64,000 bases of DNA from Pseudoxanthomonas sp. X-1. Lineage in GTDB: Bacteria > Pseudomonadota > Gammaproteobacteria > Xanthomonadales > Xanthomonadaceae. The stretch is taken from assembly GCF_020042665.1 (NCBI RefSeq), contig NZ_CP083376.1, positions 2,640,001 through 2,704,000 of the forward strand, written 5' to 3'. How positions within the stretch are numbered: the stretch's first letter is position 1; every line of letters starts with the position of its first letter. The notes under the pieces were generated by a model. The model saw only the letters and a list, made by a program, of their open reading frames with translations, was not told the DNA's origin and did no database searches. Made by a program: the position numbers and the translations under genes. This document shows, in pieces, positions 8,889-59,437 of this stretch.

Positions 8889-9524
8889 TTATGTGCCCGC
8901 CTTACGGCGAGCTGTTTCCGATGCTTCGCGCAGGATTTCCCGCCCCCCATTCGCTGCGATTGCGGCCACGATGACGCCCAGCACCAGATCCGGGATGTTC
9001 GACCCGAACCCCATCACCAGCACCCCGGACAGCACAATCGCACCATTGACGATGGAGTCGTTGCTGGTAAAGATCGCTGACGCCTTGAAGTTCACATCTT
9101 CCCCGCGATGGCGGCGCAGTAGTCTGAGGCACACTAGGTTCAAAGCCGCGTTCAGCGCGGCCATGGCCATCATGGCTGGGCCGACAGGCTCTTCCCCTCC
9201 AGCGAAGCGGCGTAGGACTTCCAACAGCAGCAGCGCGGCCAGGCCGATTAGCAAGAAACCCGACAAGCGGGCCGCGCCCACCTTGACCGTTGCCGCACGA
9301 CCGACGGCATACAGGCTAACCGCATAGACCGACGCATCGGCGAGGTTGTCCAACCCGGCGCCCATCAGCGCCGTAGAGCCAGCCCAGATGCCAAGGGCAA
9401 TGCCGGCGGCGGACTGCGTCAGGTTGATCAGCAACACAGTCAGAAGAATCTTTCGGTCCTTCGCATCGCTCGCATCTAGGCGGCCCAACTCGTCGTTTTC
9501 GTGATTTCTGTGGTTTTCAGCCAT
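8889..9524 (-). CDS. Cation diffusion facilitator family metal transporter
   Basis: The protein has 211 residues with about five to six membrane segments, beginning ILLTVLLINLTQSAAGIALG. The segment GAGLDNLADASVYAVS carries the paired Asp residues of the CDF metal site. A second site is likely around FKASAIFTSNDSIVNG. It is short for CDF because the cytoplasmic C-terminal domain is missing, which is usual for the copies found in cad/pbr clusters. It lies beside a broken desaturase and a CadR/cadA module, so Cd/Zn/Pb efflux is likely. The N-terminus has a His/Asn-rich MAENHRNHEN stretch that could sense metal. Confidence 0.82.
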   Translation of the reverse strand: MAENHRNHENDELGRLDASDAKDRKILLTVLLINLTQSAAGIALGIWAGSTALMGAGLDNLADASVYAVSLYAVGRAATVKVGAARLSGFLLIGLAALLLLEVLRRFAGGEEPVGPAMMAMAALNAALNLVCLRLLRRHRGEDVNFKASAIFTSNDSIVNGAIVLSGVLVMGFGSNIPDLVLGVIVAAIAANGGREILREASETARRKAGT

Positions 9525-9623
9525 GCATTGTTCCTTCCAAATCGATGGATGCTGAAGCCTGTAGCGGCTGGAGAGTCAAGGCGCAGATGCAACGAACTTG
9601 CCACAGGGTCTTCCCGGACGCCC

Positions 9624-9655
9624 TTGACTCTACCGTAGCTAGAAGGTTTTCCAAT
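9624..9655 (+). promoter_or_regulatory. MerR-family (CadR/PbrR-like) promoter before the broken desaturase
   Basis: The -35 TTGACT (9624-9629) is followed by a dyad CTCTA...TAGAAG and a -10 near TCCAAT (9650-9655), giving a long 20-base spacer typical of MerR promoters. It closely resembles the cadA promoter at 11019-11049, sharing TTGACTCTA and AGGTTTTC. It points at the pseudogene. Confidence 0.6.
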
Positions 9656-9681
9656 CCAGTCAGAGCTTTAGGACAGAACAG

Positions 9682-10145
9682 ATGAGCACCAATGCGCCCC
9701 CTTCATTGCGACTGTCATCCGGTATGGCTGCTATCCACTGATCCGTGGCGCCACTGCGGTTGTGCTCTTCGGCGAGCTCGCGACCGGCCGGCCGTCTTTT
9801 CCGACGGAGCTACTCACAGTGATCGTCGCGCTCGCTTGTGCCGCCTTGCTAGAGGGCGGGCGGCCTTTCCACTCCCCGTTGAGCCAGTAGCGGCGTTCCA
9901 AGCTGTGGTTGGCCGTCGGCGCATGGCTCGGCTTCTTGGTCGTGCATCTGGCCTTCCAGCACTCCAATCTGGGATACCGGGTCGGGCCGTTGGGATTGTT
10001 GATCGGGGTGGCTGAAGCCCATCGCTGGCATCACAAGCGTGAGCACGAAGACGCCCAAGTCAACTACGGCGATTTCTGGATGCCCGGGGGCCACTTGTTC
10101 AGCGCTTTCCGGTCGCAAAAGCACACGCTGGGCGCCAAAGAGTGA
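9682..10145 (+). pseudogene. Broken sterol desaturase / fatty acid hydroxylase family gene
   Basis: Two frames together encode a degraded membrane hydroxylase. The first runs from about 9702 (FIATVIRYGCYPLIRG...) to a stop near 9890. The second resumes near 9897 with LWLAVGAWLGFLVVHLAFQH and carries the metal-binding motif HRWHHKREHED, ending at 10145. The catalytic His cluster of the central part is missing, and the ATG at 9682 is out of frame with the body. Such genes are common companions of cad/pbr clusters; here the product must be non-functional. Confidence 0.72.
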
Positions 10146-10599
10146 CACTCAAGAAAGATGGACTTTCCAATGGACTACGGCCCGCAGCTTGTCTATCCCT
10201 TCCGGAGCCGGCCAGCAGCGGCAAACGCTTGCGCTGCTGGCTATACGATCTTGCCCACGTCGCATTCTTGCGCGAGTCGGGCCTTGCGGCTTCTTGCGAA
10301 GCGATCGCGAGTTGCGTGGCGTGCCCATGAGTCGGGCCGCGTCGTGGCGCACTGCTACCTTGGCCTGCACCTGCACCTGCGCAGCCACGCCGCGATGCTC
10401 GGTCTGGCCTGGAGAACCCGTAAGGTGGCGGAGATTGCGGCGCGCAGGTCGTCCGGCTCGCGCTGGCTCCTGTGGGCCACGCCCTCGGTCGCACGCCGTC
10501 TCAAAACGTCAGAATCGCGCGCTTTCGCATGATGGAGCGCGGCACGTGGCTCTCAGAACTGGACCCGATCACTTCCAGCACCGATGACACGCTCGAGCT
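10146..10599. other. Non-coding stretch between the desaturase remnant and cadR
   Basis: No gene is supported in these 454 bases. The open frames here have atypical composition, no ribosome-binding site and no recognisable motif. It may be decayed sequence of the metal module. Confidence 0.5.
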
Positions 10600-10998
10600 T
10601 CAGGCGGGCTCGGCCAAGCTGTTGAGAATGCCGCACTCGCGCGAGGTTCGGGCGCTATCGCAGGAGCGTCGCAGATCCATTAACTCGCGCTCCAAGGCGC
10701 GCAATTCCTTCATCTTGGTCCGCACTTGCGCGATATGAGCGTCGACCAGCGCGTTCACCTCGCCGCAGCCCAACTCTGGCCGATCCCGTAAGTTCAGCAG
10801 TTGACGGATCTCATCCAGCGTCATGTCCTTCGCCCGGCAGCGGCGGATGAACAGCAAGCGCTGCAAATGGACTTCGTCATAGAGCCTGAAGTTGCCCTCG
10901 CTACGTGCAGGCTCGGGCAGCAAGCCTTCTGACTCGTAAAAGCGCACGGTCTGCACCAAGCAATCTGCCTTCTTGCCCAGTTCACCGATCCGCATCAT
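10600..10998 (-). CDS. Cd(II)/Pb(II)-responsive MerR-family regulator
   Basis: The protein has 132 residues. The N-terminal MerR HTH reads RIGELGKKADCLVQTVRFYESEGLLPEPAR, followed by the YDEVHLQRLLFIRRCRAKDMTLDEIRQLL helices. Metal-site cysteines fit the CadR/PbrR group: Cys13 in the HTH, ELGCGEV at the dimer helix, and C-terminal RRSC and RECGIL. It is divergent from cadA and its start lies 21 bases from the cadA -35 element. By family it represses cadA without metal and activates it by DNA distortion when Cd or Pb binds. The two adjacent ATG codons leave the exact start open by one residue. Confidence 0.9.
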   Translation of the reverse strand: MMRIGELGKKADCLVQTVRFYESEGLLPEPARSEGNFRLYDEVHLQRLLFIRRCRAKDMTLDEIRQLLNLRDRPELGCGEVNALVDAHIAQVRTKMKELRALERELMDLRRSCDSARTSRECGILNSLAEPA

Positions 10999-11018
10999 GG
11001 TTGCTTCCTATAAAAAAC

Positions 11019-11049
11019 TTGACTCTATATCTACTAGAGGTTTTCTAAT
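11019..11049 (+). promoter_or_regulatory. cadA promoter with CadR/PbrR operator
   Basis: The -35 TTGACT (11019-11024) and -10 TCTAAT (11044-11049) are separated by 19 bases. The spacer holds the dyad CTCTA (11023-11027) / TAGAG (11035-11039). This is the classic MerR-type arrangement. Transcription should begin near 11056, which rules out the ATGs at 11048 and 11051 as starts. Confidence 0.85.
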
Positions 11050-11089
11050 GATGGCATCCGGGGAAAACCTTGTCAATGAAGAGCGATCT

Positions 11090-14002
11090 ATGAACAAAGA
11101 ACCTTCCAGCCCATGCGCCTGCTCCGGCGGCAATGGCCAACAGACGGCGTGCGCCAGTGAGCAGGCCAGCACTGAAACCACCGTTTTCCACGTGAGCAAC
11201 ATGGATTGCCGCAATGAGGAAGCACTGGTGCGGCGAACGCTGGAGGGCATGCCCGGTGTCGAGCGGCTCCTGTTCGATCTTCCGCAGCGTTTGTTGACCA
11301 TTTCGCACCGCGAAGTCTCGGCCGATGCCTTGGAGCAAGCGCTGAATTCGGTGGGCATGAAGGCTCAGGCTGTCCGAGACGCCGCCGTGTCGACCACCTA
11401 CCGCATCGAGAACATGGACTGCCCGAGCGAGGAGAAACTCATCCGCTCGCACCTCGGGGCAGTCGAGGGAATTCAGGACCTCGACTTCGACCTCGCTGAG
11501 CGCACCCTGTCGGTGAAACACCTCGCTCAGGCACGCGCGCAGATGGAGCAGGTCCTGGCCTCGATCGGCATGCGCGCCAAGGAGCAGACCTTCGGCCACA
11601 CGGGGCCGATCGAAGCCGCGGCTGTGATCCCATCCTCGGCCCTGCAGCAGCAACCAACCGCTGCCGTTTCCGCGCCGCCGATCGGCGAGCGGGTGACGTA
11701 CCGGATCGAGAACATGGATTGCCCGACGGAAGAAGCGCTGATCCGCGACCGGCTGGGCAAGCTGCCGGGTGTGACCGCGCTCGACTTCAATCTGATGCAG
11801 CGTGTGCTGGGAGTCCAGCACACGCTGGCGACCTCAGCGCCGATCGAGAAGGCGCTTGCTTCCATTGGAATGCAGGCTGCGCGGCAGGACATGCAGACAG
11901 CCACCACGGTACTTCGCATCGCGAAGATGGACTGTCCGACCGAGGAAAGTCTGATCCGCGGCAAGCTGCAAGGCATGCCGGGCGTGCAGGGAATGGATTT
12001 CAACCTGATGCAGCGCACGCTCACGGTTCGGCACACACCCGACGCGATCAAGCCGGCAGTCGAAGCCATCGAATCGCTGGGCATGGAAGCCGAGGTCCAG
12101 AGGACTGATGAGCCGCGCGATGCCCCGGTGGCCGCGCACAAGACCAATTGGTGGCCGATGGCGGTTTCGGGCGTTGCGGCGGTGGCCGCCGAAGGCGTGT
12201 ACTGGGTCAACGACGGCAATCATTGGGCCGTGATCGTGCTGGCACTGGTTTCGATCTTCACCGGCGGCCTCAGCACCTACAAGAAGGGCTGGATCGCGCT
12301 GAAGAACCTCAACCTGAACATGAACGCCCTGATGGCCATCGCGGTCACCGGCGGCATGGCGATCGGCCACTGGCCGGAGGCCGCCATGGTCATGTTCCTG
12401 TTCGCGTTGGCGGAAGTGATCGAGGCGAAGTCGCTGGACCGCGCCCGCAACGCCATTCGGGGGCTGATGGACTTGGCGCCCGAGACCGCGACCGTGCGGC
12501 AGGCCGATGGCTCATGGACAGAGCTGCCGGCCAAGGAGGTCGCAAAGGGCGCGGTGGTCCGCGTGCGTCCTGGCGAGCGCATCGCACTGGACGGCCTGAT
12601 CACCTCGGGTCGATCGGCCATCAACCAGGCGCCCATCACCGGCGAGAGCCTGCCCGTCGAGAAGGCCGAAGGTGACCAGGTCTTCGCCGGAACCATCAAT
12701 GAGACCGGCTCTTTCGAATACAAGGTGACCGCAGGCGCCAGCGACTCGACGCTCGCGCGCATCATCCATGCCGTGGAGTCCGCGCAGGGCAGCCGTGCGC
12801 CCACGCAGCGCTTCGTCGACCAGTTCGCCCGCGTCTACACGCCGGCGGTGTTCGCGGTGTCCGTGCTGGTTGCCGTCGTGCCGCCGCTCGCCTTCGGCGG
12901 CGCATGGTTTGACTGGGTCTACAAGGCCCTGGTACTGCTGGTGATCGCCTGCCCCTGCGCTCTGGTCATCTCCACGCCGGTCACCATCGTCAGCGGCTTG
13001 GCCGCTGCCGCCCGACGCGGCATCCTGATCAAGGGTGGCGTCTACCTGGAGGGCGGGCGCAAGCTCAAGGCGTTGGCCCTGGACAAGACCGGCACACTCA
13101 CACATGGCAAGCCCGAGCAGACCGACTTCGTGCCGCTGATCGGCGAGGCGCAGGAAGTTGCCGCCTGGGCCGCAAGCCTCGCGGCACGCTCGGACCATCC
13201 TGTGTCTCAGGCCATCGCCCGCAAGGCGAACCGTGACGGCATCGCGCTGCACGAGGTCGACGACTTCGCGGCGCTGCCTGGCCGCGGCGTGCGCGGCCGC
13301 GTCGCCGGGCGCATGTTGCACATGGGCAACCACAGGCTCGCCCAGGAGCTGGGCCTGAGCGAAGCGACGCTCCAGGCTCGGCTGGAGACCCTGGAGCGCC
13401 AAGGCAAGACAGCGATCCTGCTGATGGACGATGCGACCGTGCTCGGCATTTTTGCAGTGGCCGACACCGTGAAGGAAACCAGCCGTGAGGCGGTGGCCGA
13501 CCTGCAGGCGCTGGGTGTGCGCACGCTGATGCTGACGGGGGACAACCAGCACACGGCCGCGGCCATCGCTGCCCAGGTCGGAATCTCTGAAGCCCGTGGT
13601 GACCAACTGCCCGAAGACAAGCTCAAGACCATCGAAAGCCTGGTCGGCGGCGAGGGCCAGGTGGGCATGGTGGGCGACGGCATCAACGATTCGCCCGCGC
13701 TCGCCCGTGCCGACATCGGCTTCGCCATGGGCGCGGCCGGCACCGACACCGCGATCGAAACAGCCGACGTCGCCCTGATGGACGACGACCTGCGCAAGAT
13801 CCCCGCCTTCATCCGGCTGTCGCGTAGCACTGCGGCGATCCTCACGCAGAACATCGTTCTGGCCCTTGGCATCAAGGCGGTGTTCCTTGCGTTGACGTTC
13901 ACAGGGCATGCCACCATGTGGATGGCTGTGTTCGCTGACATGGGGGCAAGTCTTTTGGTTGTCGTCAATGGGCTGCGCCTCCTGAAGTTCAAGGCGGCAT
14001 GA
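11090..14002 (+). CDS. cadA: Cadmium/lead/zinc-translocating P-type ATPase with four N-terminal HMA domains
   Basis: The protein has 970 residues from the ATG at 11090, the first ATG downstream of the expected transcription start. After a Cys-rich N-tail (CACSGG, TACASEQ) come four heavy-metal-associated domains with MDC motifs near residues 37, 108, 208 and 279; all are the acidic MDCxxE type of Zn/Cd/Pb pumps. The ATPase core follows with TGES near 518, the membrane CPC motif near 620, DKTGT near 664, SDHP near 702 and GDGIND near 862. It exports divalent metal from cytoplasm to periplasm. Most family members have one or two HMA domains, so four is notable. LspA follows 3 bases after the stop. 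Confidence 0.95.
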   Translation: MNKEPSSPCACSGGNGQQTACASEQASTETTVFHVSNMDCRNEEALVRRTLEGMPGVERLLFDLPQRLLTISHREVSADALEQALNSVGMKAQAVRDAAVSTTYRIENMDCPSEEKLIRSHLGAVEGIQDLDFDLAERTLSVKHLAQARAQMEQVLASIGMRAKEQTFGHTGPIEAAAVIPSSALQQQPTAAVSAPPIGERVTYRIENMDCPTEEALIRDRLGKLPGVTALDFNLMQRVLGVQHTLATSAPIEKALASIGMQAARQDMQTATTVLRIAKMDCPTEESLIRGKLQGMPGVQGMDFNLMQRTLTVRHTPDAIKPAVEAIESLGMEAEVQRTDEPRDAPVAAHKTNWWPMAVSGVAAVAAEGVYWVNDGNHWAVIVLALVSIFTGGLSTYKKGWIALKNLNLNMNALMAIAVTGGMAIGHWPEAAMVMFLFALAEVIEAKSLDRARNAIRGLMDLAPETATVRQADGSWTELPAKEVAKGAVVRVRPGERIALDGLITSGRSAINQAPITGESLPVEKAEGDQVFAGTINETGSFEYKVTAGASDSTLARIIHAVESAQGSRAPTQRFVDQFARVYTPAVFAVSVLVAVVPPLAFGGAWFDWVYKALVLLVIACPCALVISTPVTIVSGLAAAARRGILIKGGVYLEGGRKLKALALDKTGTLTHGKPEQTDFVPLIGEAQEVAAWAASLAARSDHPVSQAIARKANRDGIALHEVDDFAALPGRGVRGRVAGRMLHMGNHRLAQELGLSEATLQARLETLERQGKTAILLMDDATVLGIFAVADTVKETSREAVADLQALGVRTLMLTGDNQHTAAAIAAQVGISEARGDQLPEDKLKTIESLVGGEGQVGMVGDGINDSPALARADIGFAMGAAGTDTAIETADVALMDDDLRKIPAFIRLSRSTAAILTQNIVLALGIKAVFLALTFTGHATMWMAVFADMGASLLVVVNGLRLLKFKAA

Positions 14003-14005
14003 ACA

Positions 14006-14506
14006 ATGGATGAACCATCTCTTCGCAAGACGCAGTGGTACTCACTCGCGATCGTTATATTCGCCGGCGATCAGGCAGCTAAGAGCTACATTGACGCGAC
14101 AACTCCCTTGGGTTGGTCGCACGAGGTGGCGTCATTCTTCAACCTAGTTCACGCTCTCAATCCCGGCGCGGCGTTCAGCTTCCTTGCTGGCGCGGGCGGC
14201 TGGCAGCGGTGGTTTTTTCTGGCGATCGCGTTCGCAATATCGGCATGGCTCGCATGGCTGCTCTCCCGGCCGCTGCGCAAAACGGAAGGCCTTTCGTACA
14301 GCCTCATTCTGGGCGGCGCATTGGGCAACGCGTTCGACCGCGCCACGCGCGGGCACGTTATCGACTACATCGACTTTCACCTGCACGGCTGGCACTGGCC
14401 CGCCTTCAACATCGCTGACATGGCCATCGTGGGCGGGGCGATCGCGCTGGTGGCCCAGTCGTTCATGAGCGTGGAGAACCCGGCCGCCACAAAGGAGTCC
14501 CAGTGA
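14006..14506 (+). CDS. lspA: Prolipoprotein signal peptidase II of the metal module
   Basis: The protein has 166 residues with four membrane segments. The family motifs are in place: GDQAAKSYI near residue 16, NPGAAFSFL near 51, GNAFDRATRGHVIDYIDF near 110, and FNIADMAI near 132, which give the two catalytic aspartates. It lies 3 bases after cadA and is cotranscribed. Such lspA copies (PbrC type) recur in lead and cadmium operons; a role in processing resistance lipoproteins is assumed from the family. Confidence 0.93.
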   Translation: MDEPSLRKTQWYSLAIVIFAGDQAAKSYIDATTPLGWSHEVASFFNLVHALNPGAAFSFLAGAGGWQRWFFLAIAFAISAWLAWLLSRPLRKTEGLSYSLILGGALGNAFDRATRGHVIDYIDFHLHGWHWPAFNIADMAIVGGAIALVAQSFMSVENPAATKESQ

Positions 14507-15179: not shown

Positions 15180-15211
15180 AGCCCCGCACTTATTGCGGGG
15201 CTTTCTTTTTT
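15180..15211 (+). terminator. Rho-independent terminator
   Basis: The 9-bp arms AGCCCCGCA (15180-15188) and TGCGGGGCT (15194-15202) enclose a 5-base loop and are followed by TTCTTTTTT. Confidence 0.9.
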
Positions 15212-15289
15212 CCGCGTTCGCCAATCGGGGCTGTTGCAAATGCCGATTTCCGGCTGACGCGGCTCGCCTCGCGCATGAAGCTGCCCGCA

Positions 15290-15385
15290 TGTGTCGCTGA
15301 TTCGTCAGCACCATGCCAGCAGCCAGAGTTTCCAGGCTGCCGCGGATTCTTTCCGCGCTACCCGCCAGTCCGCCATCGCATCGAG
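15290..15385 (+). ncRNA. Three-stem cis-regulatory RNA-like element, copy 1
   Basis: Stem 1 is GCTGA/TCAGC around a TTCG tetraloop (15296-15309). A linker with CATGCCA leads to stem 2, GCAGCC (15319-15324) with GGCTGC (15335-15340). Stem 3 is CGCGGA (15341-15346) with TCCGCG (15352-15357). A CCGC..CATCG tail follows. Three further copies (18.3, 24.4 and 58.7 kb) keep the same order of stems with different paired bases. It precedes the 70-residue gene at 15492. Confidence 0.7.
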
Positions 15386-15491
15386 TCTGCGGACGCGCGT
15401 CACCCGTGACGCCGATGCTTTTTTCTCAACCGCGTGCGGGAGCTGCCATCCCGTGAGGGACGAGGCCCCGCTTTTTCCAAGGAGCCCGTCC

Positions 15492-15704
15492 ATGTCCCAG
15501 CAAGCCTCTTTCGGCCAGTTGGCCTTGATCCATTGCGGCAAGTTCCTGCCGCTCGAAATCCTGCATAGCGCCGCCGGCCACTACATCGGCACGCGCGATA
15601 CAGAAGGTCCCGTTTCGCGGGAATCCTGCCAGTACTTCCGCAGCTATGCCGCGGCTCAACGTGCCCTCGAAAGAGGCGGCTGGTCCCAGCTCGCCACACC
15701 CTGA
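15492..15704 (+). CDS. Small conserved ICE protein, unknown function
   Basis: The protein has 70 residues. The ATG at 15492 follows CCAAGGAGC. It is not recognised beyond being typical of this ICE region. It shows a compact alpha/beta sequence (QLALIHCGKFLPLEIL, then a YFRSYAAAQRALERGGW helix). It has its own long structured leader containing the three-stem RNA element. The next gene follows after 21 bases and may be cotranscribed. Confidence 0.65.
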   Translation: MSQQASFGQLALIHCGKFLPLEILHSAAGHYIGTRDTEGPVSRESCQYFRSYAAAQRALERGGWSQLATP

Positions 15705-18191: not shown

Positions 18192-18213
18192 AGCCCCTTT
18201 CGAGGGGCTTTTT
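18192..18213 (+). terminator. Rho-independent terminator
   Basis: AGCCCCT (18192-18198), a TTCG loop and AGGGGCT (18203-18209) are followed by TTTTTC. Confidence 0.9.
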
Positions 18214-18282: not shown

Positions 18283-18400
18283 GCCATGCTTGCCCCATGT
18301 TCGTCGGCGTTGCCGGCACATGCCCAGGCAGTCGAGACCTTCGAGGCTGCAAGCGCGGGAAACCGTGCTGGTCGTTTCTTCCTACGGACCTACCGCGTCC
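18283..18400 (+). ncRNA. Three-stem cis-regulatory RNA-like element, copy 2
   Basis: Stem 1 is GTCGGC (18303-18308) / GCCGGC (18312-18317). The linker ACATGCCCAG leads to stem 2, GCAGTC (18328-18333) / GGCTGC (18345-18350). Stem 3 is GCGCGG (18353-18358) / CCGTGC (18363-18368) with a GAAA loop. Pairing uses different bases from the other copies, including G-U pairs. It precedes the gene at 18473. Confidence 0.72.
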
Positions 18401-18472
18401 ATCCACGCCACCCACAAGGGACCTCTCCCTTGCGGGCGGGGAATCCCTTGTTTTTCCTCAAGGAGTTTCCCC

Positions 18473-19297
18473 ATGGATCGTTCCCTCATCAAATCCATGA
18501 TGCCTTCGCTGGTCGCAGGCCATGTGCCCCGCAACGTGCGGTCGTTCAAGTACCGCGTGTTCGATGATCAGCCGCTGTCCTCAACGCTGGGCTTCGCCAT
18601 CGACCCCCAACCCTTCGACGGCAAGGTGGTCGCCGCGACCGACGATGCCATCGTCGTCAAGCTCAAGCCTTCCGAGTTCGCGGTGCTCGATCCCAGCCTG
18701 GTGACCACGGTTCCTGCCGAAGGCGCCAAGGTGCATGTCCAACCCTATGCCCGTCGTCGCTTCGACGGACTGCGCGCGGACACGCCGGAGGTCATCACCG
18801 AGGAGACTTCGGACGGCACGCCGTACACCATCACGAGGCACATCCTCGGCTCGGCGCCGGCCAAGCTGCCCATTCCCACGCCGCAGTGCATGGAGTTGGG
18901 CCAGCTCATCGAGCAGTTGGAGGAGATGCCGGCCCCCGATCGCTTCCGGCGCATCACCCACATGCTGGTGGATGCCGGTGCCCGCGACTTCACCTGGGTC
19001 GATCCCACGCCCTCCAAGATCATCGAGACCCCGCCGGCGATCAGCTTCACGGTCTCGACCGCGAAGTTCGAGGGCCGGGTGACGATCCTCTACGACCGCG
19101 GCGGAGACACCTACGTGGTGGAACTGCACCGTCAGAACGGTGAATCGGTCGAACTGGTCGATCGGCACGACGAGGTGTATTTCGACATGCTCGGCGAAGT
19201 GCTGGAGAGGCTCATCGACGACGGGCGCTGGCGCCAGATCGACGTGAGCATCCTCGACGCGAAAGCGGCCCGCAAGCGCCAGGCCGTCCCGGCATGA
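18473..19297 (+). CDS. Conserved ICE hypothetical protein downstream of RNA element copy 2
   Basis: The protein has 274 residues. The ATG at 18473 follows CAAGGAGTTTCC. It appears to have two halves. The N-terminal part is rich in beta strands (GFAIDPQPFDGKVVAATDD, VKLKPSEFAVLDPSLV). The C-terminal part reads TILYDRGGDTYVVELHRQNGE and a YFDMLGEVLERLIDDGRW helix. No known domain is recognised. Its leader carries the three-stem RNA element plus a CAAGGGA/TCCCTTG hairpin (18415-18432), so expression is probably regulated in the leader. Confidence 0.72.
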   Translation: MDRSLIKSMMPSLVAGHVPRNVRSFKYRVFDDQPLSSTLGFAIDPQPFDGKVVAATDDAIVVKLKPSEFAVLDPSLVTTVPAEGAKVHVQPYARRRFDGLRADTPEVITEETSDGTPYTITRHILGSAPAKLPIPTPQCMELGQLIEQLEEMPAPDRFRRITHMLVDAGARDFTWVDPTPSKIIETPPAISFTVSTAKFEGRVTILYDRGGDTYVVELHRQNGESVELVDRHDEVYFDMLGEVLERLIDDGRWRQIDVSILDAKAARKRQAVPA

Positions 19298-20400: not shown

Positions 20401-22387
<1,987 letters not shown>

Positions 22388-22405
22388 GGAAAAGGGAGGT
22401 GTTCG

Positions 22406-23403
22406 ATGAACGCCTACAGCCGCGCCAACCGCCGCATCTACGCGGCCTTGTCCGATCCCCTGTCGGCCACCCACCGGCACCGCCTCGACGATCTGCTCAA
22501 GCGCCACGACAACGGCAAGACGACCTGGCTGGCCTGGCTGCGCCAGTCGCCCGTCAAGCCGAACTCCCGCCACATACTCGAACACATCGAGCGCCTCAAA
22601 GCCTGGCAGGCGCTCGACCTGCCTTCCGGCATCGAGCGGTCGGTGCACCAGAACCGCCTGCTCAAGATCGCCCGCGAAGGCGGCCAGATGACGCCCGCCG
22701 ATCTGGCCAAGTTCGAGGCACAGCGCCGCTACGCGACCCTGGTGCGCTCGCCATCGAGGGCATGGCCACCGTCACCGACGAAATCATCGACCTGCACGAC
22801 CGCATCCTGGGCAAGCTGTTCAACGCTGCCAAGCACAAGCATCAGCAGCAGTTCCAGGCGTCCGGCAAGGCGATCAACGCCAAGGTGCGGCTGGCCACCT
22901 CGATCAAGCAGGGCACGGTGACGGCCTCGCTGATGCTCAGGAAACTCGGCAGCTACCCGCGCCAGAACGGCCTGGCCGTGGCGCTGCGCGAGCTGGGCCG
23001 CATCGAGCGAACGCTGTTCATCCTGGACTGGCTGCAAAGCGTCGAGCTGCGCCGCCGCGTGCATGCCGGACTGAACAAGGGCGAAGCCCGCAACGCGCTA
23101 GCCCGCGCCGTGTTCTTCAACCGGCTGGGCGAAATCCGCGACCGCAGTTTCGAGCAGCAGCGCTACCGGGCCAGCGGCCTCAACCTGGTGACGGCGGCCA
23201 TAGTGTTGTGGAACACGGTCTATCTGGAACGGGCCTCAAACGCCTTACGCGGTCACGGCCAGACTGTCGATGACGCCCTGTTGCAGTACCTGTCGCCGCT
23301 GGGCTGGGAGCACATCAACCTGACCGGCGATTACCTCTGGCGCAGCAGCGCCAAGATCGGCGCGGGCAAGTTCAGGCCGCTACGACCGCTGCAACCGGCT
23401 TAG
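22406..23403 (+). pseudogene. tnpA: Decayed Tn3-family transposase (tnpA remnant)
   Basis: The frame starts at the equivalent of residue 170 or so of a Tn21/Tn501-type TnpA ([21 protein letters not shown]). A single-base loss near 22742 shifts the frame after RRYATLV. The second frame continues [22 protein letters not shown] to KAINAKVRL, then jumps directly to [19 protein letters not shown], so several hundred residues are missing, including the catalytic acidic residues. The C-terminus to [12 protein letters not shown] is intact and its stop overlaps the right inverted repeat. Three lesions make it non-functional. Confidence 0.92.
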
Positions 23404-24325: not shown

Positions 24326-24403
24326 CAGGCGCCGGGTGGCGCGGACAAAGGGAAGCGCCCGGGTGCCGATTGATTGCTGCCGCGCGCGCGAGGCCCCGCC
24401 ATG

Positions 24404-24515
24404 CTGGCCCCATGCCTGCTGACGTCGTCAGCGACATGCCAGGCAACCATCGGTCTTCGAGGTTGCGGCGCAGTTCCCACTGCGTGACCGAGCCAGCTCG
24501 CACCGCATCCTTCCG
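24404..24515 (+). ncRNA. Three-stem cis-regulatory RNA-like element, copy 3 (likely DUF3577 RNA motif)
   Basis: Stem 1 is GCTGAC (24418-24423) / GTCAGC (24427-24432). The linker GACATGCCAG leads to stem 2, GCAACC (24443-24448) / GGTTGC (24461-24466). Stem 3 is CGCAGT (24469-24474) / ACTGCG (24479-24484). A CACCGCATCC tail follows. All stems are perfect. The next gene is DUF3577, and a DUF3577 RNA motif is known from comparative genomics, so the match by context is strong. Confidence 0.8.
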
Positions 24516-24634
24516 CGAGCGGCCACCAGCCTCTGGTGGCGGATGCTTTCGCCTTATCAACCCACCGCGGGGTCACGCACCTTCCCCGCATGCGTGGGCC
24601 GGTGTGTCTCCGCTTTTCCCAATGGAGATTCACC

Positions 24635-25564
24635 ATGAACACCACGTCCAACGAGAAATCGTATTTCGACCTCCACACATCGGGCATCGGCTACATCCAG
24701 CGTGTCCGTGAAGTGCCCGTCAGGGGCGGCCGCCGTGCGCAGCCCTTCCTGGCATGCACCATCGCCGCATTGGTCGGCCCCGCCAGGGACCCCAGCTACC
24801 GCTACTTCGATGTCAAGGTCTCGGGTGCCGAGGCCAAGAAGCTCGTTCAGCGCTACATCGGCGTTGACGATTCCAAGCAGCGCCCGCTGGTGCGCTTTCG
24901 CCTCGGTGACCTGTGGGGCGATGCGTACATCCGCGACAAGGGCGAAAACCAGGGCAAGGCCGCCGCGTCCCTCAAGGCGCGACTGCTCAAGGCCGAGCCG
25001 ATCGAGCGGGCCGAACTGGCTTCAATCGAGCAGCACGAGCTGATTACCCGTGGCATCGGCTACCTCAACCGTCCGAAGGACGTCACCCCCAAGGATGGCG
25101 ATCCGTTCCTGTCATGCTCCATCGCCGCATTGGCCGGACCTGTCGATGAACCGGAATATCGGTACTTCGACACGATCGTCGCCACCCTCGGGGCCGAGCA
25201 TCTGGTTCGCCGATGCGTGCAGGCCATCGAAGGGGATCGCAAGGTGCTGATCGCCTTCCGTCTCAACGACATGAAGATCGATCCGTACATCCGTACCAAG
25301 GGCGAGCACGCTGGGGCACCGGCCGCAAGCCTGGAGTCGACGCTGATCCACATCGGTCTGATCAAGATCGATGGCACCCAGGTCTATCCGATGAGCCAGG
25401 CGCAAGCCGAGGCGCCAACGGTGGAGGACGCACCCGCGCCCGAAGCCGACAACGCCATCGACACTGCCGCCGACGCCGTTTCCGACCTACCCGTCGAGTC
25501 CGCCGAGCGCGAGCCCGAGGGTGAAGTCGAGGAGCAGGAGCCGGCCTTGGTCGCTTCGTTTTGA
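24635..25564 (+). CDS. DUF3577 / STY4534-family ICE replication-associated protein
   Basis: The protein has 309 residues. The ATG at 24635 follows AATGGAGATTCACC. It is made of two related copies of the DUF3577 unit. Residues about 8-130 hold GIGYIQRVREVPVRGG, ACTIAALVGPARDPSYRYFD and GDAYIRDKGENQGK. Residues about 135-255 hold GIGYLNRPKDVTPKDGD, SCSIAALAGPVDEPEYRYFD and IDPYIRTKGEHAG. An acidic Ala/Pro/Glu tail follows. The family is associated with ICE and pathogenicity-island replication; the activity is not established. The RNA element and further hairpins in the leader suggest leader-based control. Confidence 0.87.
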   Translation: MNTTSNEKSYFDLHTSGIGYIQRVREVPVRGGRRAQPFLACTIAALVGPARDPSYRYFDVKVSGAEAKKLVQRYIGVDDSKQRPLVRFRLGDLWGDAYIRDKGENQGKAAASLKARLLKAEPIERAELASIEQHELITRGIGYLNRPKDVTPKDGDPFLSCSIAALAGPVDEPEYRYFDTIVATLGAEHLVRRCVQAIEGDRKVLIAFRLNDMKIDPYIRTKGEHAGAPAASLESTLIHIGLIKIDGTQVYPMSQAQAEAPTVEDAPAPEADNAIDTAADAVSDLPVESAEREPEGEVEEQEPALVASF

Positions 25565-34622: not shown

Positions 34623-36437
34623 TCAAATGCCAGCGGCACGCATTCGCGCCTCCAGCTCATCAAGGAATGGCGAGCGCCCAAAGCGCATAGGGCCATAGCG
34701 GCCATCAACGAAGCCCGAATACAGCATGTGGACCTCGTCGCGAGCACGTGTGAGTCCCACATAGAAGAGCCGGCGACTTTCGCGCAACTTCTCTGGAGTT
34801 TCATTGCGCCACGGCAGATTTCCGAGGTCGAGTCCAACCATGATGACGACGTCGTACTCACAGCCCTTTGCGGAATGCAGTGTCAGCAGATTCAGGTGAT
34901 CGGGCGAACCGTCCCGACCGCCCAAACTCGTGATGTCTAGCGAAGCCAGTGCACCGCCTTCAGCGAGCGCTGCCGTCATGCGATCCAGTTGCTCCTTCTG
35001 ATCAGCGAGCGCCAATTCAGCCGCCAGCAGATGATCCACTACACCGTTGCGCAGCGAAGCAACAAATTCTCGCGCAGGTTGCTGGTCAGCACGCAGCTCC
35101 CATAGCAAGGCGGTTAGCTCTTGCTCTTCGCGCTTGGCCTGTGAATCGTCCAAGCTCGCCCGATGAAATGCGCGATAGCGGTCGAGTAGTCCACGCAATT
35201 GTGGGCGTCCAACACGCCAGCCACCCGCGCACCACGCCGCACAATCTTCTACCCAACTTGTTAGGGCAACCTTGCGGTAAGGTGCTGCGGTATCCACACG
35301 GATGTGATCGAGACCACCGGTTGCCACAGCTTCAGCCACGATATCGCCTGCGCGATAGTCTTTGTATAGGATCGCGATATCGCCCAGTGTTCGTCCCGGC
35401 TTGGAGGCTAAGGCCGCCGGAATGATCTGCGCGACGGCGTGCGCAGCCTGGTCCGCCATACCACCCGGGCGCAGGACAAATTCGATGGTCGTTTGTCGCG
35501 CAGGATCGCTCGCTTGATAGCCTCGGGCTTCTCCAAGCGCCATCTCTGACGCAGTCACGATCCCTGCACCAGAACGGTAATTTAATTGAAGCTGGACAGG
35601 CTCAATGTCTCTGCGAGCCGCCAATTCCATGAGCAACGCGCCATCAGCTCCCGTAAATCCATATATCGACTGATCCGCATCCCCGACAGCGAAAAGTCGG
35701 ACACCCCCGTCGAAGGCAAGGCGTTTGACGATGCGATGCAGTGCCACGCCTAAATCCTGGTACTCATCCACCGCGAGCACGGGGAATTTTGCCTGAACCA
35801 GAGGTAGTACCCAGTCGTGCTCGGCGATCAAACGCTGGCCGAAGACAACCATGTCATCGTAGTCAATCAGCCCCTCGTCGCGCAGAGCGGCCTCGTAGGC
35901 CTCGGCCCAGGCAGCGAGTTCCTCCTCGCTACGCCAAGCGACGCTATTTCGATTGAGCACGGAACGGCGATGCCGCCCGAGGTCAATAACTTTGTACGGA
36001 TGGTTCTGGCCGAAAAGCGCATCTCCAGTTTGCTTCAACAACCGATCACTGACTCGTTGAGTGGCTACCGAAAGTGGGAAAGATATGGGCAGGCCGGCCA
36101 GGCGTCCATACGGCATCAAGAGATGACGCAGACAGAACCCATGGACCGTACCAATGAAAAGATTAGGTGCCTGCTGAAGTCCCAAGTTTTCAATTCGGCG
36201 AGCGAGTTCGCGAGCGCACTCCTGGCTATAAGTGATGCACGCAACGCCACGAGGGGCCTCGACGTCTTCGGCCAGGATGCGGGCGAGCTTTAGGACGAGT
36301 GTCTTGGTCTTACCGCTCCCGGGACCAGCGAGTACCACACAATGTCCTTGAGAGTTGTAAGCTGCCAACTGCCCTGGATTTCCAGCCAACTCGGCAGCCT
36401 GCGCCAGGTAGGCTGTACCGACGTTACGCGACGGCAT
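34623..36437 (-). CDS. gajB: Gabija helicase GajB (UvrD-like)
   Basis: The protein has 604 residues. The start at 36437 overlaps the gajA stop by 14 bases; longer versions would run deep into gajA. Superfamily 1 motifs are complete: VVLAGPGSGKTKTLVLK (near 34), TVHGFCLRHL, VDEYQDLG, GDADQSIYGFTGADG, LQLNYRSGAG, LLTLHSAKGCEYDVVI and RRLFYVGLTRARDEVHML. In Gabija, GajB senses nucleic-acid ends and nucleotide levels and works with GajA to cut phage DNA. Order and overlap with gajA support the pair. Its GC is lower than the ICE backbone. Confidence 0.92.
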   Translation of the reverse strand: MPSRNVGTAYLAQAAELAGNPGQLAAYNSQGHCVVLAGPGSGKTKTLVLKLARILAEDVEAPRGVACITYSQECARELARRIENLGLQQAPNLFIGTVHGFCLRHLLMPYGRLAGLPISFPLSVATQRVSDRLLKQTGDALFGQNHPYKVIDLGRHRRSVLNRNSVAWRSEEELAAWAEAYEAALRDEGLIDYDDMVVFGQRLIAEHDWVLPLVQAKFPVLAVDEYQDLGVALHRIVKRLAFDGGVRLFAVGDADQSIYGFTGADGALLMELAARRDIEPVQLQLNYRSGAGIVTASEMALGEARGYQASDPARQTTIEFVLRPGGMADQAAHAVAQIIPAALASKPGRTLGDIAILYKDYRAGDIVAEAVATGGLDHIRVDTAAPYRKVALTSWVEDCAAWCAGGWRVGRPQLRGLLDRYRAFHRASLDDSQAKREEQELTALLWELRADQQPAREFVASLRNGVVDHLLAAELALADQKEQLDRMTAALAEGGALASLDITSLGGRDGSPDHLNLLTLHSAKGCEYDVVIMVGLDLGNLPWRNETPEKLRESRRLFYVGLTRARDEVHMLYSGFVDGRYGPMRFGRSPFLDELEARMRAAGI

Positions 36438-38208
36438 CGCGGATATGCTCCAGCGCAGAGCGAATGTAGGCCGGGCAAACGTCCTCAGACACCGACGGCG
36501 CAAGTGCCTGTGCAAATCTCCCCTTGCCAATCCGTTCAATCAACTTCAGCAGCCGGTCTTCATCGACCTGATCCGGATCATCCACCCACTCTTGCAATGC
36601 GTCCCGGGTGACTTGCCTCAGCGGCAACTCCTGCTCGATTACCGACTTCATCGCCTCGGTCATTCCGGCGGCAAATAGGTCGGATTCCAGCGTGCTCTCG
36701 TTGACGAAGTATCCAAACTCTGCGGCGTATTTGAGCACCTCATCTATATCCAGGTCATCGTAACCATATTCGTCATCGACCTCGTTTAAGAGATTAATTA
36801 ATCGCCTGTGGGCTAGTGGAGGTTTGCCATTGACCGGGTCGCGATCTGTCAAAATTACATGTGGAATATTTAGCCCTTTAGGGCCCAAAAGCTTCACATA
36901 AGGAGTGAAGTTCGTCCCCCCGACCGAGCACACAGTGATTCCAAGTATGTCGAAAGGAATCCCGAGGGCGTCGGCGAACGCGGGAATGATGAAGCGCTCG
37001 GCGTCCCCTTCAACCAGAATCACTCCCCGGGAAAATAATATTTCTCCGCGAGTGACGTCGATGTAGCGCTGGAGGTCGTCTTCATCCCTCTGTGTGAAAG
37101 GTGTGTTCGCGGTCGAAACCGCGACGGTTTTCCCGTCCGTTGCGTTATGACGCAGGAGAACGATGGACCTAATCGGTGTAACGCTTGCGATATGCGGCGA
37201 GTGAGTAGTGAGAATTGTCGTCAGTGGAGGGGCTTCGTCCTCATCTTCCGCTCTTGTGCCGAGAAAGTAGCGATAGACAAGACGCTGGACATGCGGATGC
37301 AGGTGCGCTTCGGGCTCCTCGACGACGAAGAATGTGTGGTCGCGCTCCCCCTCGGAGACGAGACGGTCGAGTTCGAGGCTCTTCAAGGCCAGGAAGATCA
37401 GATTCGCCGTTCCTAGGCTGGCATCGCCGACACCGCGAACACCGTTGTCGATAAGCAGCCGAAGGCTACGCAGCAATGCATCCACTCGTGTAGGTGCAAG
37501 TCCGAGCGATACCGGGACAGCATGTTGCCCCCCGGCGATTGCGATCAGCCGTTCGCTGATCCGTTCTGCTGTCGCTACCACTTCCTCGTGTCCAGCCAGC
37601 TCTCGCTGTGCTTGGTCGACCTGATTCTGAATCTCCTCACGGGCGTCATCATCCAACGACGCGGCAAGATCCTCAATGAGTGGCCTCAATGGCGAATTGC
37701 GCCAGCTCGCAAGGTCCTTCTCAGCGTCACGCAGGGCTACCTGAACATCTATTGGCAACATCCGGCGAAGTGCGCCGCCGATACGCATTTCGGGATCGTT
37801 GCCACCGAAGATCACATACTCATAGTCCTTCAACGATTCCGGGGCGCGCCCCAGGCCCGCCTTAGGCTGGAAGCGGTAGGTGAGTCGGGCCACCATGGGT
37901 GGGCCAGGATCAATCACGCAATCGTTGAGGTGAGCCATCAGCCGGGGATCGTTTGTGAAGTCCGTTAGATCCACAGAGACCTCAATGGTCGCACCAACCT
38001 TGTCTTCGCCAAGTCCGTCCCAGAAATGTTCAAGCCCCAGTTGTCGATCGCGTTCAGACAAGCCCGGATCAAGGATCAACTGCAGGCCGCGAATGAAATT
38101 GCTCTTGCCAACCTTGTTCTCTCCCACGATGACGATACTTTCCCCCGTCTCGACATCAACATCCGAGAAATTGGCGAAATTGATCAACCTGACCCGAGAA
38201 ACCCTCAT
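36424..38208 (-). CDS. gajA: Gabija ATPase-TOPRIM nuclease GajA (OLD family)
   Basis: The protein has 594 residues, the usual length. The N-terminal ABC-type ATPase begins MRVSRVRLINFANF with Walker A VGENKVGKSN (29-36), Walker B FFVVEEPEAHLHP and the H-loop ILTTHSPHI. The C-terminal TOPRIM domain carries VILVEGDAERFIIPAFA near 398 and ILTDRDPVNG near 452, the metal-binding acidic residues. GajA forms oligomers and nicks DNA when nucleotides are depleted. It is the promoter-proximal gene and its stop overlaps the gajB start. Confidence 0.92.
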   Translation of the reverse strand: MRVSRVRLINFANFSDVDVETGESIVIVGENKVGKSNFIRGLQLILDPGLSERDRQLGLEHFWDGLGEDKVGATIEVSVDLTDFTNDPRLMAHLNDCVIDPGPPMVARLTYRFQPKAGLGRAPESLKDYEYVIFGGNDPEMRIGGALRRMLPIDVQVALRDAEKDLASWRNSPLRPLIEDLAASLDDDAREEIQNQVDQAQRELAGHEEVVATAERISERLIAIAGGQHAVPVSLGLAPTRVDALLRSLRLLIDNGVRGVGDASLGTANLIFLALKSLELDRLVSEGERDHTFFVVEEPEAHLHPHVQRLVYRYFLGTRAEDEDEAPPLTTILTTHSPHIASVTPIRSIVLLRHNATDGKTVAVSTANTPFTQRDEDDLQRYIDVTRGEILFSRGVILVEGDAERFIIPAFADALGIPFDILGITVCSVGGTNFTPYVKLLGPKGLNIPHVILTDRDPVNGKPPLAHRRLINLLNEVDDEYGYDDLDIDEVLKYAAEFGYFVNESTLESDLFAAGMTEAMKSVIEQELPLRQVTRDALQEWVDDPDQVDEDRLLKLIERIGKGRFAQALAPSVSEDVCPAYIRSALEHIRDAVA

Positions 38209-57993: not shown

Positions 57994-58758
57994 ATGGAGC
58001 AGAAGCGTCCTTCCATTCCGATACAAGTCCAGGCGTTCCGCCGTCGCCACAGGCGGCCCCGCTGGCCTTGGGCCTTGACTGCTGCGCTGGTCGCGCTGCT
58101 GCTGATCTGGCTCGTGTCCCGGTCGCCCGGCGAATCCTCATCGCAGTCGCCCACGCCGGCTAGCACGGCGCAGATGGCCGGGCCGCCCTGGAAAATGGGC
58201 AACCCCGAGGGCCGTTTCACACTGACGCTCTATGCCGATCTGGAATGTCCGTTCTGCCGGGAGTACTTCCCGCAGCTCAAGCGCTGGGTCGGCAGCAACG
58301 CCGACGTGACCCTGCAATGGCATCACCAGCCGCTGGCTGCGCACGAGCCGGCCGCGTTGGCCGAGGCGCGTCTGGTCGAGTGCGTCGCCGAAGCCGGCGG
58401 GCATGCTGCCTTCTGGCGAGCCGTCGAGTGGGTCTATGCCCACACGCGCAGCGACGGCCTGGGACTGCCCGATGGCCTGCGCTACCCCGAATCGACGCCG
58501 GCCGTCGAGCAGTGCATGGCAAGCGAGCGGGTCGACGCGGCCATCCGCGCCCAGGCCGCGGAAGCCACGAAAAGCGGCGTGACGGCCACGCCGTCGCTGC
58601 GCCTGCTCGATCGCCAGACGGGTCAGTCCATCCTGCTGCAGGGACCGATCGAAGGCGATGCCTTGCTGTCGGCCATGGACATGCTGTCCGCTGATGAACC
58701 ACCCGCCACACCCGCCACCGAAATGCCTGCCGACGTTGTCGGCGACATGCCCAGGTAG
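57994..58758 (+). CDS. DsbA/thioredoxin-like membrane-anchored oxidoreductase
   Basis: The protein has 254 residues. One membrane helix lies near 27-45 (WPWALTAALVALLLIWLV). The periplasmic domain has the redox motif ADLECPFCREYF near 85 and the cis-Pro-like SGVTATPSLRLLD. It probably oxidises or isomerises cysteines of pilus or core proteins. The last codons (EMPADVVGDMPR) are written by the first hairpin of RNA element copy 4, and its stop codon lies in the second stem. Confidence 0.87.
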   Translation: MEQKRPSIPIQVQAFRRRHRRPRWPWALTAALVALLLIWLVSRSPGESSSQSPTPASTAQMAGPPWKMGNPEGRFTLTLYADLECPFCREYFPQLKRWVGSNADVTLQWHHQPLAAHEPAALAEARLVECVAEAGGHAAFWRAVEWVYAHTRSDGLGLPDGLRYPESTPAVEQCMASERVDAAIRAQAAEATKSGVTATPSLRLLDRQTGQSILLQGPIEGDALLSAMDMLSADEPPATPATEMPADVVGDMPR

Positions 58759-58825
58759 CCCGCGGTCCTTGAGGCTACGGCGCAGTCTTCTGCGCTGACC
58801 GCTCCCCGTTCGCTCCGCATCCTGG
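58721..58825 (+). ncRNA. Three-stem cis-regulatory RNA-like element, copy 4
   Basis: Stem 1 is GCCGAC (58729-58734) / GTCGGC (58738-58743). The linker GACATGCCCAG leads to stem 2, GTAGCC (58755-58760) / GGCTAC (58773-58778). Stem 3 is GCGCAG (58780-58785) / CTGCGC (58790-58795) with a TCTT loop. A CTCCGCATCC tail follows. All stems are perfect. It overlaps the end of the DsbA-like gene and precedes the RadC-like gene by about 120 bases. Confidence 0.78.
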
Positions 58826-58942
58826 CCGCGAACAATCACCTCTGCGTGGTGGTGGATGCACCTTGTTCCGTTGTTCTCATCCCCAGGAGGGCTTGCCCTC
58901 CCAGGGCGTGCGCCCTCTGATCTCATCATCCGGAGGTTCGCC

Positions 58943-59437
58943 ATGTCTCTCGTCGTCAATGACTCCTGCGTGGAGTCGCTTTCCGCTGTCGCAGCCCAGC
59001 GTGAGGACTGGATCATCCAGCAGGCTATCGCGCTGCTGGAGAGACGGATCTTCAAAGTCGGACCGTGCCTCAGCCGACCGGCCGCCGTGCGGGACTACCT
59101 GCGTCTAAAACTGGTCGCTGAGCCCAACGAGGTATTCGCAATCGTTTTCCTGGACAGCATGCACCAAGTGTTGGCCTACGAGCCGATGTTCAGGGGCACG
59201 ATCAATTCGACTGCGGTCTATCCCCGTGTCGTCGTGCAGCGTGTATTGGAGCTGAAAGCCGCCGCAGTGGTCTTCGCGCACCAGCACCCCTCGGGTGTCA
59301 CTGAGCCGTCGAGCGCCGATCGTGCGCTGACCCAGCAACTGCAGGCAGCGCTGGCGCTGATCGATGTTCGGGTACTGGATCACATCATCGTTGGCCAGGG
59401 GATTCCGTACTCCTTCGCGGAGCACAGCTTGCTGTAG
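58943..59437 (+). CDS. RadC-like JAB domain protein of the ICE
   Basis: The protein has 164 residues. The ATG at 58943 follows CCGGAGGTTCGCC. The JAB/MPN zinc motif is VVFAHQHPSGVTEPSSAD near 112, and FAIVFLDSMHQVLAYEPMFRG precedes it. RadC-like proteins of mobile elements are common; a role in DNA metabolism or anti-defence has been suggested but not settled. It is cut off from the conjugation operon by a long leader with an RNA element and by a terminator behind it. Confidence 0.92.
   Translation: MSLVVNDSCVESLSAVAAQREDWIIQQAIALLERRIFKVGPCLSRPAAVRDYLRLKLVAEPNEVFAIVFLDSMHQVLAYEPMFRGTINSTAVYPRVVVQRVLELKAAAVVFAHQHPSGVTEPSSADRALTQQLQAALALIDVRVLDHIIVGQGIPYSFAEHSLL

What the first reader, a model, noticed from the sequence alone, without database searches (positions are those of the whole stretch)
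24404..24515. A three-stem RNA-like element is repeated four times across the ICE
The elements at 15290-15385, 18283-18400, 24404-24515 and 58721-58825 share the order stem 1, linker with CATGCC, stem 2 (6 bp), stem 3 (6 bp) and a C-rich CATC tail. Stem 2 is GCAGCC:GGCTGC, GCAGTC:GGCTGC, GCAACC:GGTTGC and GTAGCC:GGCTAC, so base changes are compensated. Stems 1 and 3 show the same. The copy here precedes DUF3577 and should be the known DUF3577 RNA motif. The other three precede unrelated genes, which suggests one regulator or signal acting on several ICE transcripts.
Basis: partly seen in the sequence, partly recalled or inferred. Interest (0 to 1): 0.82.

Follow-up and report, generated by a model that had tools for sequence, protein, structure and literature searches.

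The report
Shared RNA leader of ICE operons
Four copies of a known but unexplained RNA fold (Rfam radC RNA) sit at the front of four gene groups of a mobile DNA element, and at least one of them looks like a switch that hides or exposes the ribosome-binding site of an ssDNA-binding-like protein.

Summary
The repeat is real. All four elements are Rfam radC RNA (RF01754; 85.9-123.7 bits, cut-off 40); a genome search found no others. No other Rfam family matches there, so the label 'DUF3577 RNA' is unsupported. Relatives show compensatory changes in every helix, including a loop pseudoknot and an interleaved helix that the printed Rfam model lacks. G-U far outnumbers A-C in stems (150 vs 34): the fold is kept on the mRNA strand. 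By gene order, the four copies lead four transcripts mapped in the model element ICEclc; its authors suspected post-transcriptional control at one.

Both types share one ribosome-site module, in which one strand can pair with a hairpin loop or with the Shine-Dalgarno/start region; these pairings co-vary. DUF3577 protein models as a double-OB ssDNA-binding protein. Best reading: a cis-acting translational leader. A T4 gp32-like autogenous loop is attractive but untested.

The parts
15278..15418 (+). radC RNA copy 1, leader of the 70-aa gene at 15492 (ORF88400 of ICEclc by gene order)
   Evidence: RF01754 85.9 bits; gene-order map
15180..15202 (+). terminator-like hairpin with T tail after the upstream gene, 75 nt before copy 1
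15492..15704 (+). 70-aa protein of unknown function downstream of copy 1; 113 homologues found
18192..18209 (+). terminator-like hairpin with T tail, 76 nt before copy 2
18286..18437 (+). radC RNA copy 2; its 3' domain departs from the canonical P4-P6
   Evidence: RF01754 104.9 bits
18415..18465 (+). repeat/anti-repeat set before the copy-2 gene: CAAGGGA 18415-18421, TCCCTTG 18426-18432 and 18444-18450, Shine-Dalgarno CAAGGAG 18459-18465
   Evidence: pattern kept in 32 of 36 unique leaders of this class
18473..19297 (+). 274-aa conserved ICE protein (ORF84835 by gene order), named 'GTPase' in some databases without family support
24401..24546 (+). radC RNA copy 3, leader of DUF3577 (ORF81655 by gene order)
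   Evidence: RF01754 123.3 bits
24443..24490 (+). P2 24443-24448:24461-24466, P3 24469-24473:24480-24484, and PK1 between the P2 loop (24451-24455) and the strand after P3 (24486-24490)
   Evidence: coordinates; covariation; swap control
24497..24546 (+). 3' domain: P4 24497-24501:24515-24519 interleaved with P5 24505-24510:24541-24546, which encloses hairpin P6 24523-24528:24534-24539
24567..24634 (+). ribosome-site module: P7 hairpin 24567-24572:24584-24589, loop CGCACC 24576-24581, switching strand S 24601-24611, Shine-Dalgarno/spacer R 24624-24634
24635..25564 (+). DUF3577 (PF12101 / NF040584 STY4534 family), two DUF3577 stretches; model resembles double-OB SSB
58712..58859 (+). radC RNA copy 4; its 5' 47 nt overlap the 3' end of the thioredoxin/DSBA-like gene 57994-58758
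   Evidence: RF01754 123.7 bits
58886..58942 (+). candidate ribosome-site module of copy 4: hairpin 58886-58891:58896-58901, strand 58904-58917, Shine-Dalgarno/spacer 58932-58942
   Evidence: less tested than copy 3
58943..59437 (+). RadC-like JAB-domain protein downstream of copy 4 (ORF58432 by gene order)

Best explanation
The four elements are radC RNAs acting in cis in the leaders of four operons of an ICEclc/PFGI-1-type ICE. In the DUF3577 leader a pseudoknotted upstream domain (radC RNA here, STAXI RNA in other ICEs) is followed by a ribosome-site module. In that module one strand, S, pairs either with the loop of hairpin P7 (ribosome site free) or with the Shine-Dalgarno and spacer just before AUG (ribosome site closed). 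Sensing by the upstream domain would shift this choice, so that transcription by the ICE activators and translation are gated separately. Shown by sequence comparison: the fold, its kept strand, the two interleaved pairings, the competing S pairings before DUF3577, and the exchange of radC for STAXI. Inferred: that the module controls translation, that the upstream domain drives it, and that all four operons obey one signal.
For: RF01754 matches, found only in this ICE. Compensatory changes in 38 of 43 pairs (91 distinct rows) and 31 of 43 (106 rows), none of 500 shuffles reaching the observed values. G-U 150 vs A-C 34 with registers chosen on Watson-Crick pairs only; 22 pair positions favour G-U, 4 favour A-C, of 32. 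Gene order places the copies at the head of ICEclc transcripts 85934-88400, 83350-84835, 68241-81655 and 53587-58432. ICEclc primer extension gave a weak product about 250 bp upstream of the ORF81655 start codon; the motif starts 234 nt upstream here. [quoted passage not shown] Of 40 DUF3577 genes, 14 follow radC RNA and 19 STAXI RNA at or over cut-off; no locus has both. Module co-variation in 38 leaders: P7 loop:S mean helix 4.74 vs at most 4.13 in 5000 permutations, and 0 of 5000 within type; S:spacer 4.50 vs at most 4.24, and 9 of 5000 within type.
Against: No expression or binding datum exists for this ICE; ICEclc data are transferred by gene order through the LB400 element, because the ICEclc sequence was not at hand. 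Burial of the Shine-Dalgarno beyond shuffles is clear only for DUF3577 leaders (unpaired 0.06 vs 0.29, 24 leaders; 17 at rank 0.1 or lower), partial for RadC (0.02 vs 0.11; 3 of 6) and weak or absent for the copy-1 and copy-2 classes (4 of 20 and 1 of 20). The loop:S pairing is weak when all gene classes are pooled, and by duplex energy it is no better than crossed partners for the four divergent Pseudomonas-type leaders and for one cross of radC loops with STAXI strands. Other ICE genes in this G+C-rich window can also bury their Shine-Dalgarno. In ICEclc the region before ORF58432 shows no read depletion, the cloned fragment before ORF84835 had no promoter activity, and deleting ORF88400-84388 or ORF81655-75419 did not change transfer to an isogenic strain. 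The promoter predicted by software for the 53587-58432 transcript (58,771) would lie downstream of the RNA, inside ORF58432, on my map. Permutation counts ignore relatedness.
Confidence: 0.6

Rival explanations
1. Autogenous ssDNA-sensing loop, as in T4 gene 32: the SSB-like DUF3577 protein binds the pseudoknotted leader and represses translation, and is drawn off by ICE single-stranded DNA during replication and transfer. It answers which effector drives the switch.
Against: No binding data. A shared fold shows no function. The RadC-like target is no SSB and two targets are unknown. 7 of 12 STAXI loci examined have no DUF3577 match. 4 of 40 DUF3577 genes have neither RNA.
Confidence: 0.22
2. 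mRNA processing or stability element that marks operon boundaries: cleavage at, or protection by, the fold sets transcript abundance.
For: ICEclc authors named transcript processing as one option at ORF84835 and saw the highest coverage before ORF81655. By their reads ORF58432 lies in a continuous transcript, and copy 4 overlaps the upstream gene.
Against: Does not explain the co-varying competition at the ribosome site. Terminator-like hairpins before copies 1 and 2 suggest separate initiation.
Confidence: 0.2
3. Small-molecule riboswitch.
For: Multi-helix fold with two interleaved pairings and some invariant unpaired bases; several copies ahead of different genes.
Against: The targets share no metabolic theme that I can see; in this genome confined to one ICE; no ligand known to me.
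Confidence: 0.13
4. Transcription attenuation or antitermination element.
For: Copy 1 has hairpin P6 followed by CGATGC and a T run.
Against: No terminator-like site inside the leaders of copies 3 and 4; in copy 2 the only one inside the leader is P3 with a loose T tail.
Confidence: 0.1
5. Structure of transferred single-stranded DNA (a single-strand promoter such as Frpo) rather than RNA.
For: Targets include DNA-handling genes; Weinberg 2010 raised ssDNA for STAXI, though it favoured RNA.
Against: For a template-strand structure A-C should outnumber G-U on the mRNA strand; the reverse is seen (150 vs 34). Sense-strand ssDNA is not excluded by this test.
Confidence: 0.04

Closest known systems
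Rfam radC RNA, RF01754 (Weinberg 2010, PMC2864571, passages seen)
   Same: All four copies score over the gathering cut-off and cover the whole model
   Different: PK1, P4 and P5 are absent from the consensus structure printed by cmscan, and the ribosome-site module lies beyond the model. A 2020 covariation study reports extra positive pairs for radC without telling which in the passages seen (PMC7657543)
Rfam STAXI RNA, RF01728
   Same: Occupies the same place before DUF3577 and the same downstream module in other ICEs
   Different: No match in this genome; repeated-pseudoknot design
T4 gene 32 translational operator
   Same: Pseudoknot upstream of the ribosome site of an ssDNA-binding protein gene
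   Different: Autogenous repression is shown there and untested here; this leader is larger and repeated before several operons
DUF3577 RNA motif (recalled, paper not held)
   Same: Possibly the P7/S module next to DUF3577
   Different: Could not be compared; no Rfam family other than radC matched at these places

Membership tests
radC RNA (RF01754) | Covariance-model score at or above 40 bits over the full model | tested here: met
   85.9, 104.9, 123.3, 123.7 bits, positions 1-149
radC RNA (RF01754) | Helices of the model supported by compensatory changes | tested here: met
radC RNA (RF01754) | Leader position before genes of DNA-related proteins (family trait recalled) | tested here: met
   RadC-like and SSB-like targets; two targets unknown
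STAXI RNA (RF01728) | Score of 40.5 bits or more | tested here: not met
   No match in the window at E<=1 nor in genome G000
DUF3577 RNA motif | Match to its published model | not testable with these tools
   Paper not held; no family of that name among the printed Rfam matches
Riboswitch | Direct ligand binding that changes expression | not testable with these tools
   needs probing
T4 gp32-type autogenous operator | Pseudoknot 5' of the ribosome site of an SSB gene | tested here: met
   Covariation and predicted SSB-like fold; the fold is a prediction
T4 gp32-type autogenous operator | Product binds its own leader and represses translation | not testable with these tools
   needs binding and reporter assays
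Single-strand DNA promoter (Frpo type) | Structure kept on the template strand | tested here: not met
   G-U 150 vs A-C 34 on the mRNA strand
Intrinsic attenuator | Hairpin followed by a T run inside the leader | tested here: inconclusive
   Copy 1 yes, copies 3 and 4 no, copy 2 only a loose match

The most novel reading that the evidence does not exclude
radC RNA and STAXI RNA are interchangeable sensor domains of one control circuit of conjugative elements. They report free ICE-encoded SSB-like protein (hence single-stranded ICE DNA) and set translation of DUF3577, RadC and companion operons through a shared Shine-Dalgarno switch, a T4 gp32-like loop spread over a whole regulon.
Probability: 0.2. 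Interest if true: 0.85.

Novelty: new variant of a known kind. Interest (0 to 1): 0.6.

Why it matters
radC and STAXI are RNA families from one 2010 screen; I found no assigned function for either in the held library. Finding both at the same place, before the same gene and on the same ribosome-site module, suggests a common job and a concrete target. Gene order ties radC RNA to the transfer-competence regulon of ICEclc, whose authors asked how expression is kept faithful to the few transfer-competent cells and suspected post-transcriptional control. If correct, a post-transcriptional layer can be tested in an existing laboratory system.

Tried and rejected
The single-strand-promoter idea was tested by G-U versus A-C counts and rejected. 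An RNAalifold consensus of the first loose alignment failed, which I put down to misaligned classes; I used a covariance model instead. On covariance-model columns the two unmodelled helices give G-U about equal to A-C (A4: 35 vs 45, A3: 37 vs 45), which I put down to slipped registers; the Watson-Crick register version, where they give 17 vs 4, is quoted. Pooling all gene classes for the P7-loop pairing gave weak support: own helix of 5 or more in 23 of 67, swapped about 17%. Shine-Dalgarno burial is not general. In the duplex-energy comparison I dropped six of 53 leaders where the hairpin finder took another stem.

Samples: alignment A3 holds the best 150 of 182 matches. The 38-leader alignment uses 19 radC-type, 17 STAXI-type and 2 other leaders, out of 32, 18 and 3 unique ones; L235 (no module) and near copies were left out, L210, L229 and L240 had no parsed start, and the L209 window was moved by 3 nt by hand to an earlier ATG. 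The family set was chosen after STAXI had been seen there, so 14 and 19 of 40 are not frequencies.

Literature: 'radC RNA' is in 0 held papers; the accession RF01754 is in 2. The listings of searches show no paper linking radC RNA to ICEclc or a function.

Full report
WHAT IS THERE. [quoted passage not shown] Four + strand elements match Rfam radC RNA over the full model: 15278-15418 (85.9 bits), 18286-18437 (104.9), 24401-24546 (123.3) and 58712-58859 (123.7), gathering score 40. A permissive scan of all 4227 Rfam families gave four further matches, all far below their gathering scores and elsewhere. The genome search returned these four only. Copies 1 and 2 follow terminator-like hairpins by 75-76 nt. 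Copy 4 begins inside the end of the thioredoxin/DSBA-like gene. The genes that follow start at 15492 (70 aa), 18473 (274 aa), 24635 (DUF3577) and 58943 (RadC-like).

HOW WIDESPREAD. Matches over the cut-off were in 9 of 199 relatives, 2 of 369 genomes of the class sample and 6 of 398 of the phylum sample, the window's own genome counted each time. In 199 distinct motif-plus-gene contexts the largest groups downstream were DUF3577 (64), the 274-aa protein (56), the 70-aa protein (39), a group of 10 where the ORF picker took wrong frames and at least four show a DUF3577-type leader, and RadC (9); the other 21 fall in groups of 1-3. The pattern used is biased against the RadC class.

THE FOLD. 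A covariance model built from 23 sequences, with P1, P2, P3, P4 and P6, gave 182 and 112 matches in the fetched loci, some loci overlapping. On the resulting alignments 38 of 43 pairs (91 distinct rows) and 31 of 43 (106 rows) show changes on both sides, and none of 500 shuffles reached the observed values. PK1 (P2 loop with the strand after P3) and P5 (GCATCC-type with GGATGC-type, interleaved with P4) were not in the fitted model, so their support is not produced by the fit; their cells pair in 86-90% and 71-72%. Watson-Crick helices of 4 or more for PK1 occur in 89 of 111 thinned sequences against about a third when partners are swapped; for P5, 5 or more in 84 of 97 against about 55%. Copy 2 and its class have a different 3' domain; 14 of the 111 lack the canonical one. 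A 2020 study already reported extra covariation for radC without saying which pairs in the passages I saw, so part of this may be known.

RNA OR DNA. With registers chosen only by Watson-Crick pairs, G-U cells number 150 and A-C cells 34 in 111 thinned sequences; 22 of 32 pair positions favour G-U and 4 favour A-C. The structure is therefore kept on the mRNA strand, which speaks against a template-strand ssDNA promoter. Cells are not independent events.

LINK TO MAPPED TRANSCRIPTS. In the LB400 element (L178-L180), gene stops counted from the topoisomerase stop set at 91884 give the ICEclc ORF numbers 96323, 95213, 88400, 85934 and 84835 to within 1; a single fitted shift of 1853 then gives 81655, 75419, 73029, 68987, 68241, 67231, 66625, 63176, 59110 and 58432 (numbers as printed). 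On this map the four copies precede ORF88400, ORF84835, ORF81655 and ORF58432, the first genes of four of the transcripts in Gaillard 2010 (PMC2892462; section 4 part 1 with Table 1, and section 8). The same paper reports a weak primer-extension product about 250 bp upstream of the ORF81655 start codon and no 5'-RACE product; here the motif starts 234 nt upstream of that codon. LB400 has a fifth copy near ORF89247. Sulser 2022 (PMC9286271; abstract, passages and the first part of the discussion) found bimodal promoters, dependent on BisDC and InrR, before ORF88400 and ORF81655, and weak activity before ORF58432. Upstream coverage was highest for ORF81655 without a matching reporter level, from which the authors infer additional post-transcriptional mechanisms. 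Against a simple picture: no promoter activity for the ORF84835 fragment, no read depletion before ORF58432, no transfer defect in the isogenic mating when ORF88400-84388 or ORF81655-75419 were deleted, and a software-predicted promoter for the ORF58432 transcript (58,771) that on my map lies downstream of the RNA. I did not have the ICEclc sequence, so radC RNA in ICEclc itself is inferred.

RADC AND STAXI EXCHANGE PLACES. I examined 40 DUF3577 genes from three searches, each scanned with Rfam about 1.5 kb to either side. 14 are led by radC RNA over the cut-off (nine of ten in the relatives set; four in the phylum set, one of these with a short ORF between; one in the family set). 19 are led by STAXI RNA at or over the cut-off, one of them exactly at it. 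Three have sub-threshold matches (two STAXI, one radC) and four have neither (one is a partial gene, one has an internal stop). No locus had both. The family set was chosen after STAXI had appeared there, so these are not frequencies. In five STAXI-DUF3577 loci looked at more closely, a Pfam SSB gene follows DUF3577 in three and a topoisomerase gene lies upstream in two; one holds a homologue of the 70-aa protein. Seven other STAXI loci in the same three genomes have no DUF3577 match.

THE SHARED MODULE. Between the upstream RNA and the DUF3577 start codon both types carry hairpin P7, a strand S with the anti-Shine-Dalgarno, and the Shine-Dalgarno with spacer (alignment of 38 leaders). S can pair with the P7 loop or with the Shine-Dalgarno/spacer, for example CGCACC / GGTGTGTCTCC / GGAGATTCACC here and AAATACA / TGTATTTTTC / GAGAAATACA in L202. 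Own helices exceed permuted ones: loop:S 4.74 vs mean 3.60, maximum 4.13 of 5000, and 0 of 5000 when permuted within type; S:spacer 4.50 vs 3.57, maximum 4.24, and 9 of 5000 within type. Duplex energies agree for S:R (own -16.5 and -15.5 kcal/mol against -12.7 and -11.2 across types) and only partly for the loop (radC own -14.4; STAXI own -7.0 against -4.8 within-type swaps, but radC loops on STAXI strands also reach -7.0, and four divergent Pseudomonas-type leaders do no better than crossed ones). Other genes of the window reach similar S:R energies by chance, so the co-variation, not the strength, is the evidence. In the copy-2 class a similar competition is written differently (CAAGGGA, two TCCCTTG, CAAGGAG) and kept in 32 of 36 unique leaders. 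For the copy-1 class I found no convincing burial of the Shine-Dalgarno.

READING. The simplest account is a cis-acting translational leader with an upstream sensing domain. That the sensor reads the SSB-like product or ssDNA, as T4 gp32 does on its own pseudoknot leader (PMC535899, abstract and passages), is a proposal.

Noticed in passing
20699-23403: Pyridine-nucleotide reductase with an HMA domain (mercuric-reductase-like, my reading) and the end of a Tn3-type transposase lie between the 274-aa gene and the DUF3577 leader; the leader is intact downstream.
   Followed up: no
8889-14506: Metal-resistance cargo (cation efflux, MerR-type regulator, P-type ATPase with four HMA stretches, lipoprotein signal peptidase) sits between topoisomerase and copy 1.
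   Followed up: no
36424-38208 and 49167-50111: OLD-like AAA/TOPRIM protein and AbiH protein, kinds often met as phage-defence cargo.
   Followed up: no
24635-25564: DUF3577 occurs as a double-domain protein (about 300 aa) here and as a single-domain one (about 183-193 aa) in other ICEs with the same leader.
   Followed up: partly
L061, L093, L166, L169, L173, L175: Stenotrophomonas maltophilia D457 carries four copies, three with the same bit scores as copies 1-3 of the window, so a closely related ICE is there.
   Followed up: partly
plasmid record NC_017958.1: A Tistrella mobilis plasmid record matches the copy-3 leader at 99.2% over 246 bases, a sign of recent wide transfer.
   Followed up: no
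L054, L110: Motif matches in metagenome-assembled contigs labelled Planctomycetia and Phycisphaerae may be binning errors or distant transfer; not resolved.
   Followed up: no
18473-19297: Some databases call this protein GTPase, but no Pfam or NCBIfam family supports the name.
   Followed up: partly
L204: A DUF3577 gene with the ribosome-site module but no Rfam match upstream; a third upstream RNA type may exist.
   Followed up: no
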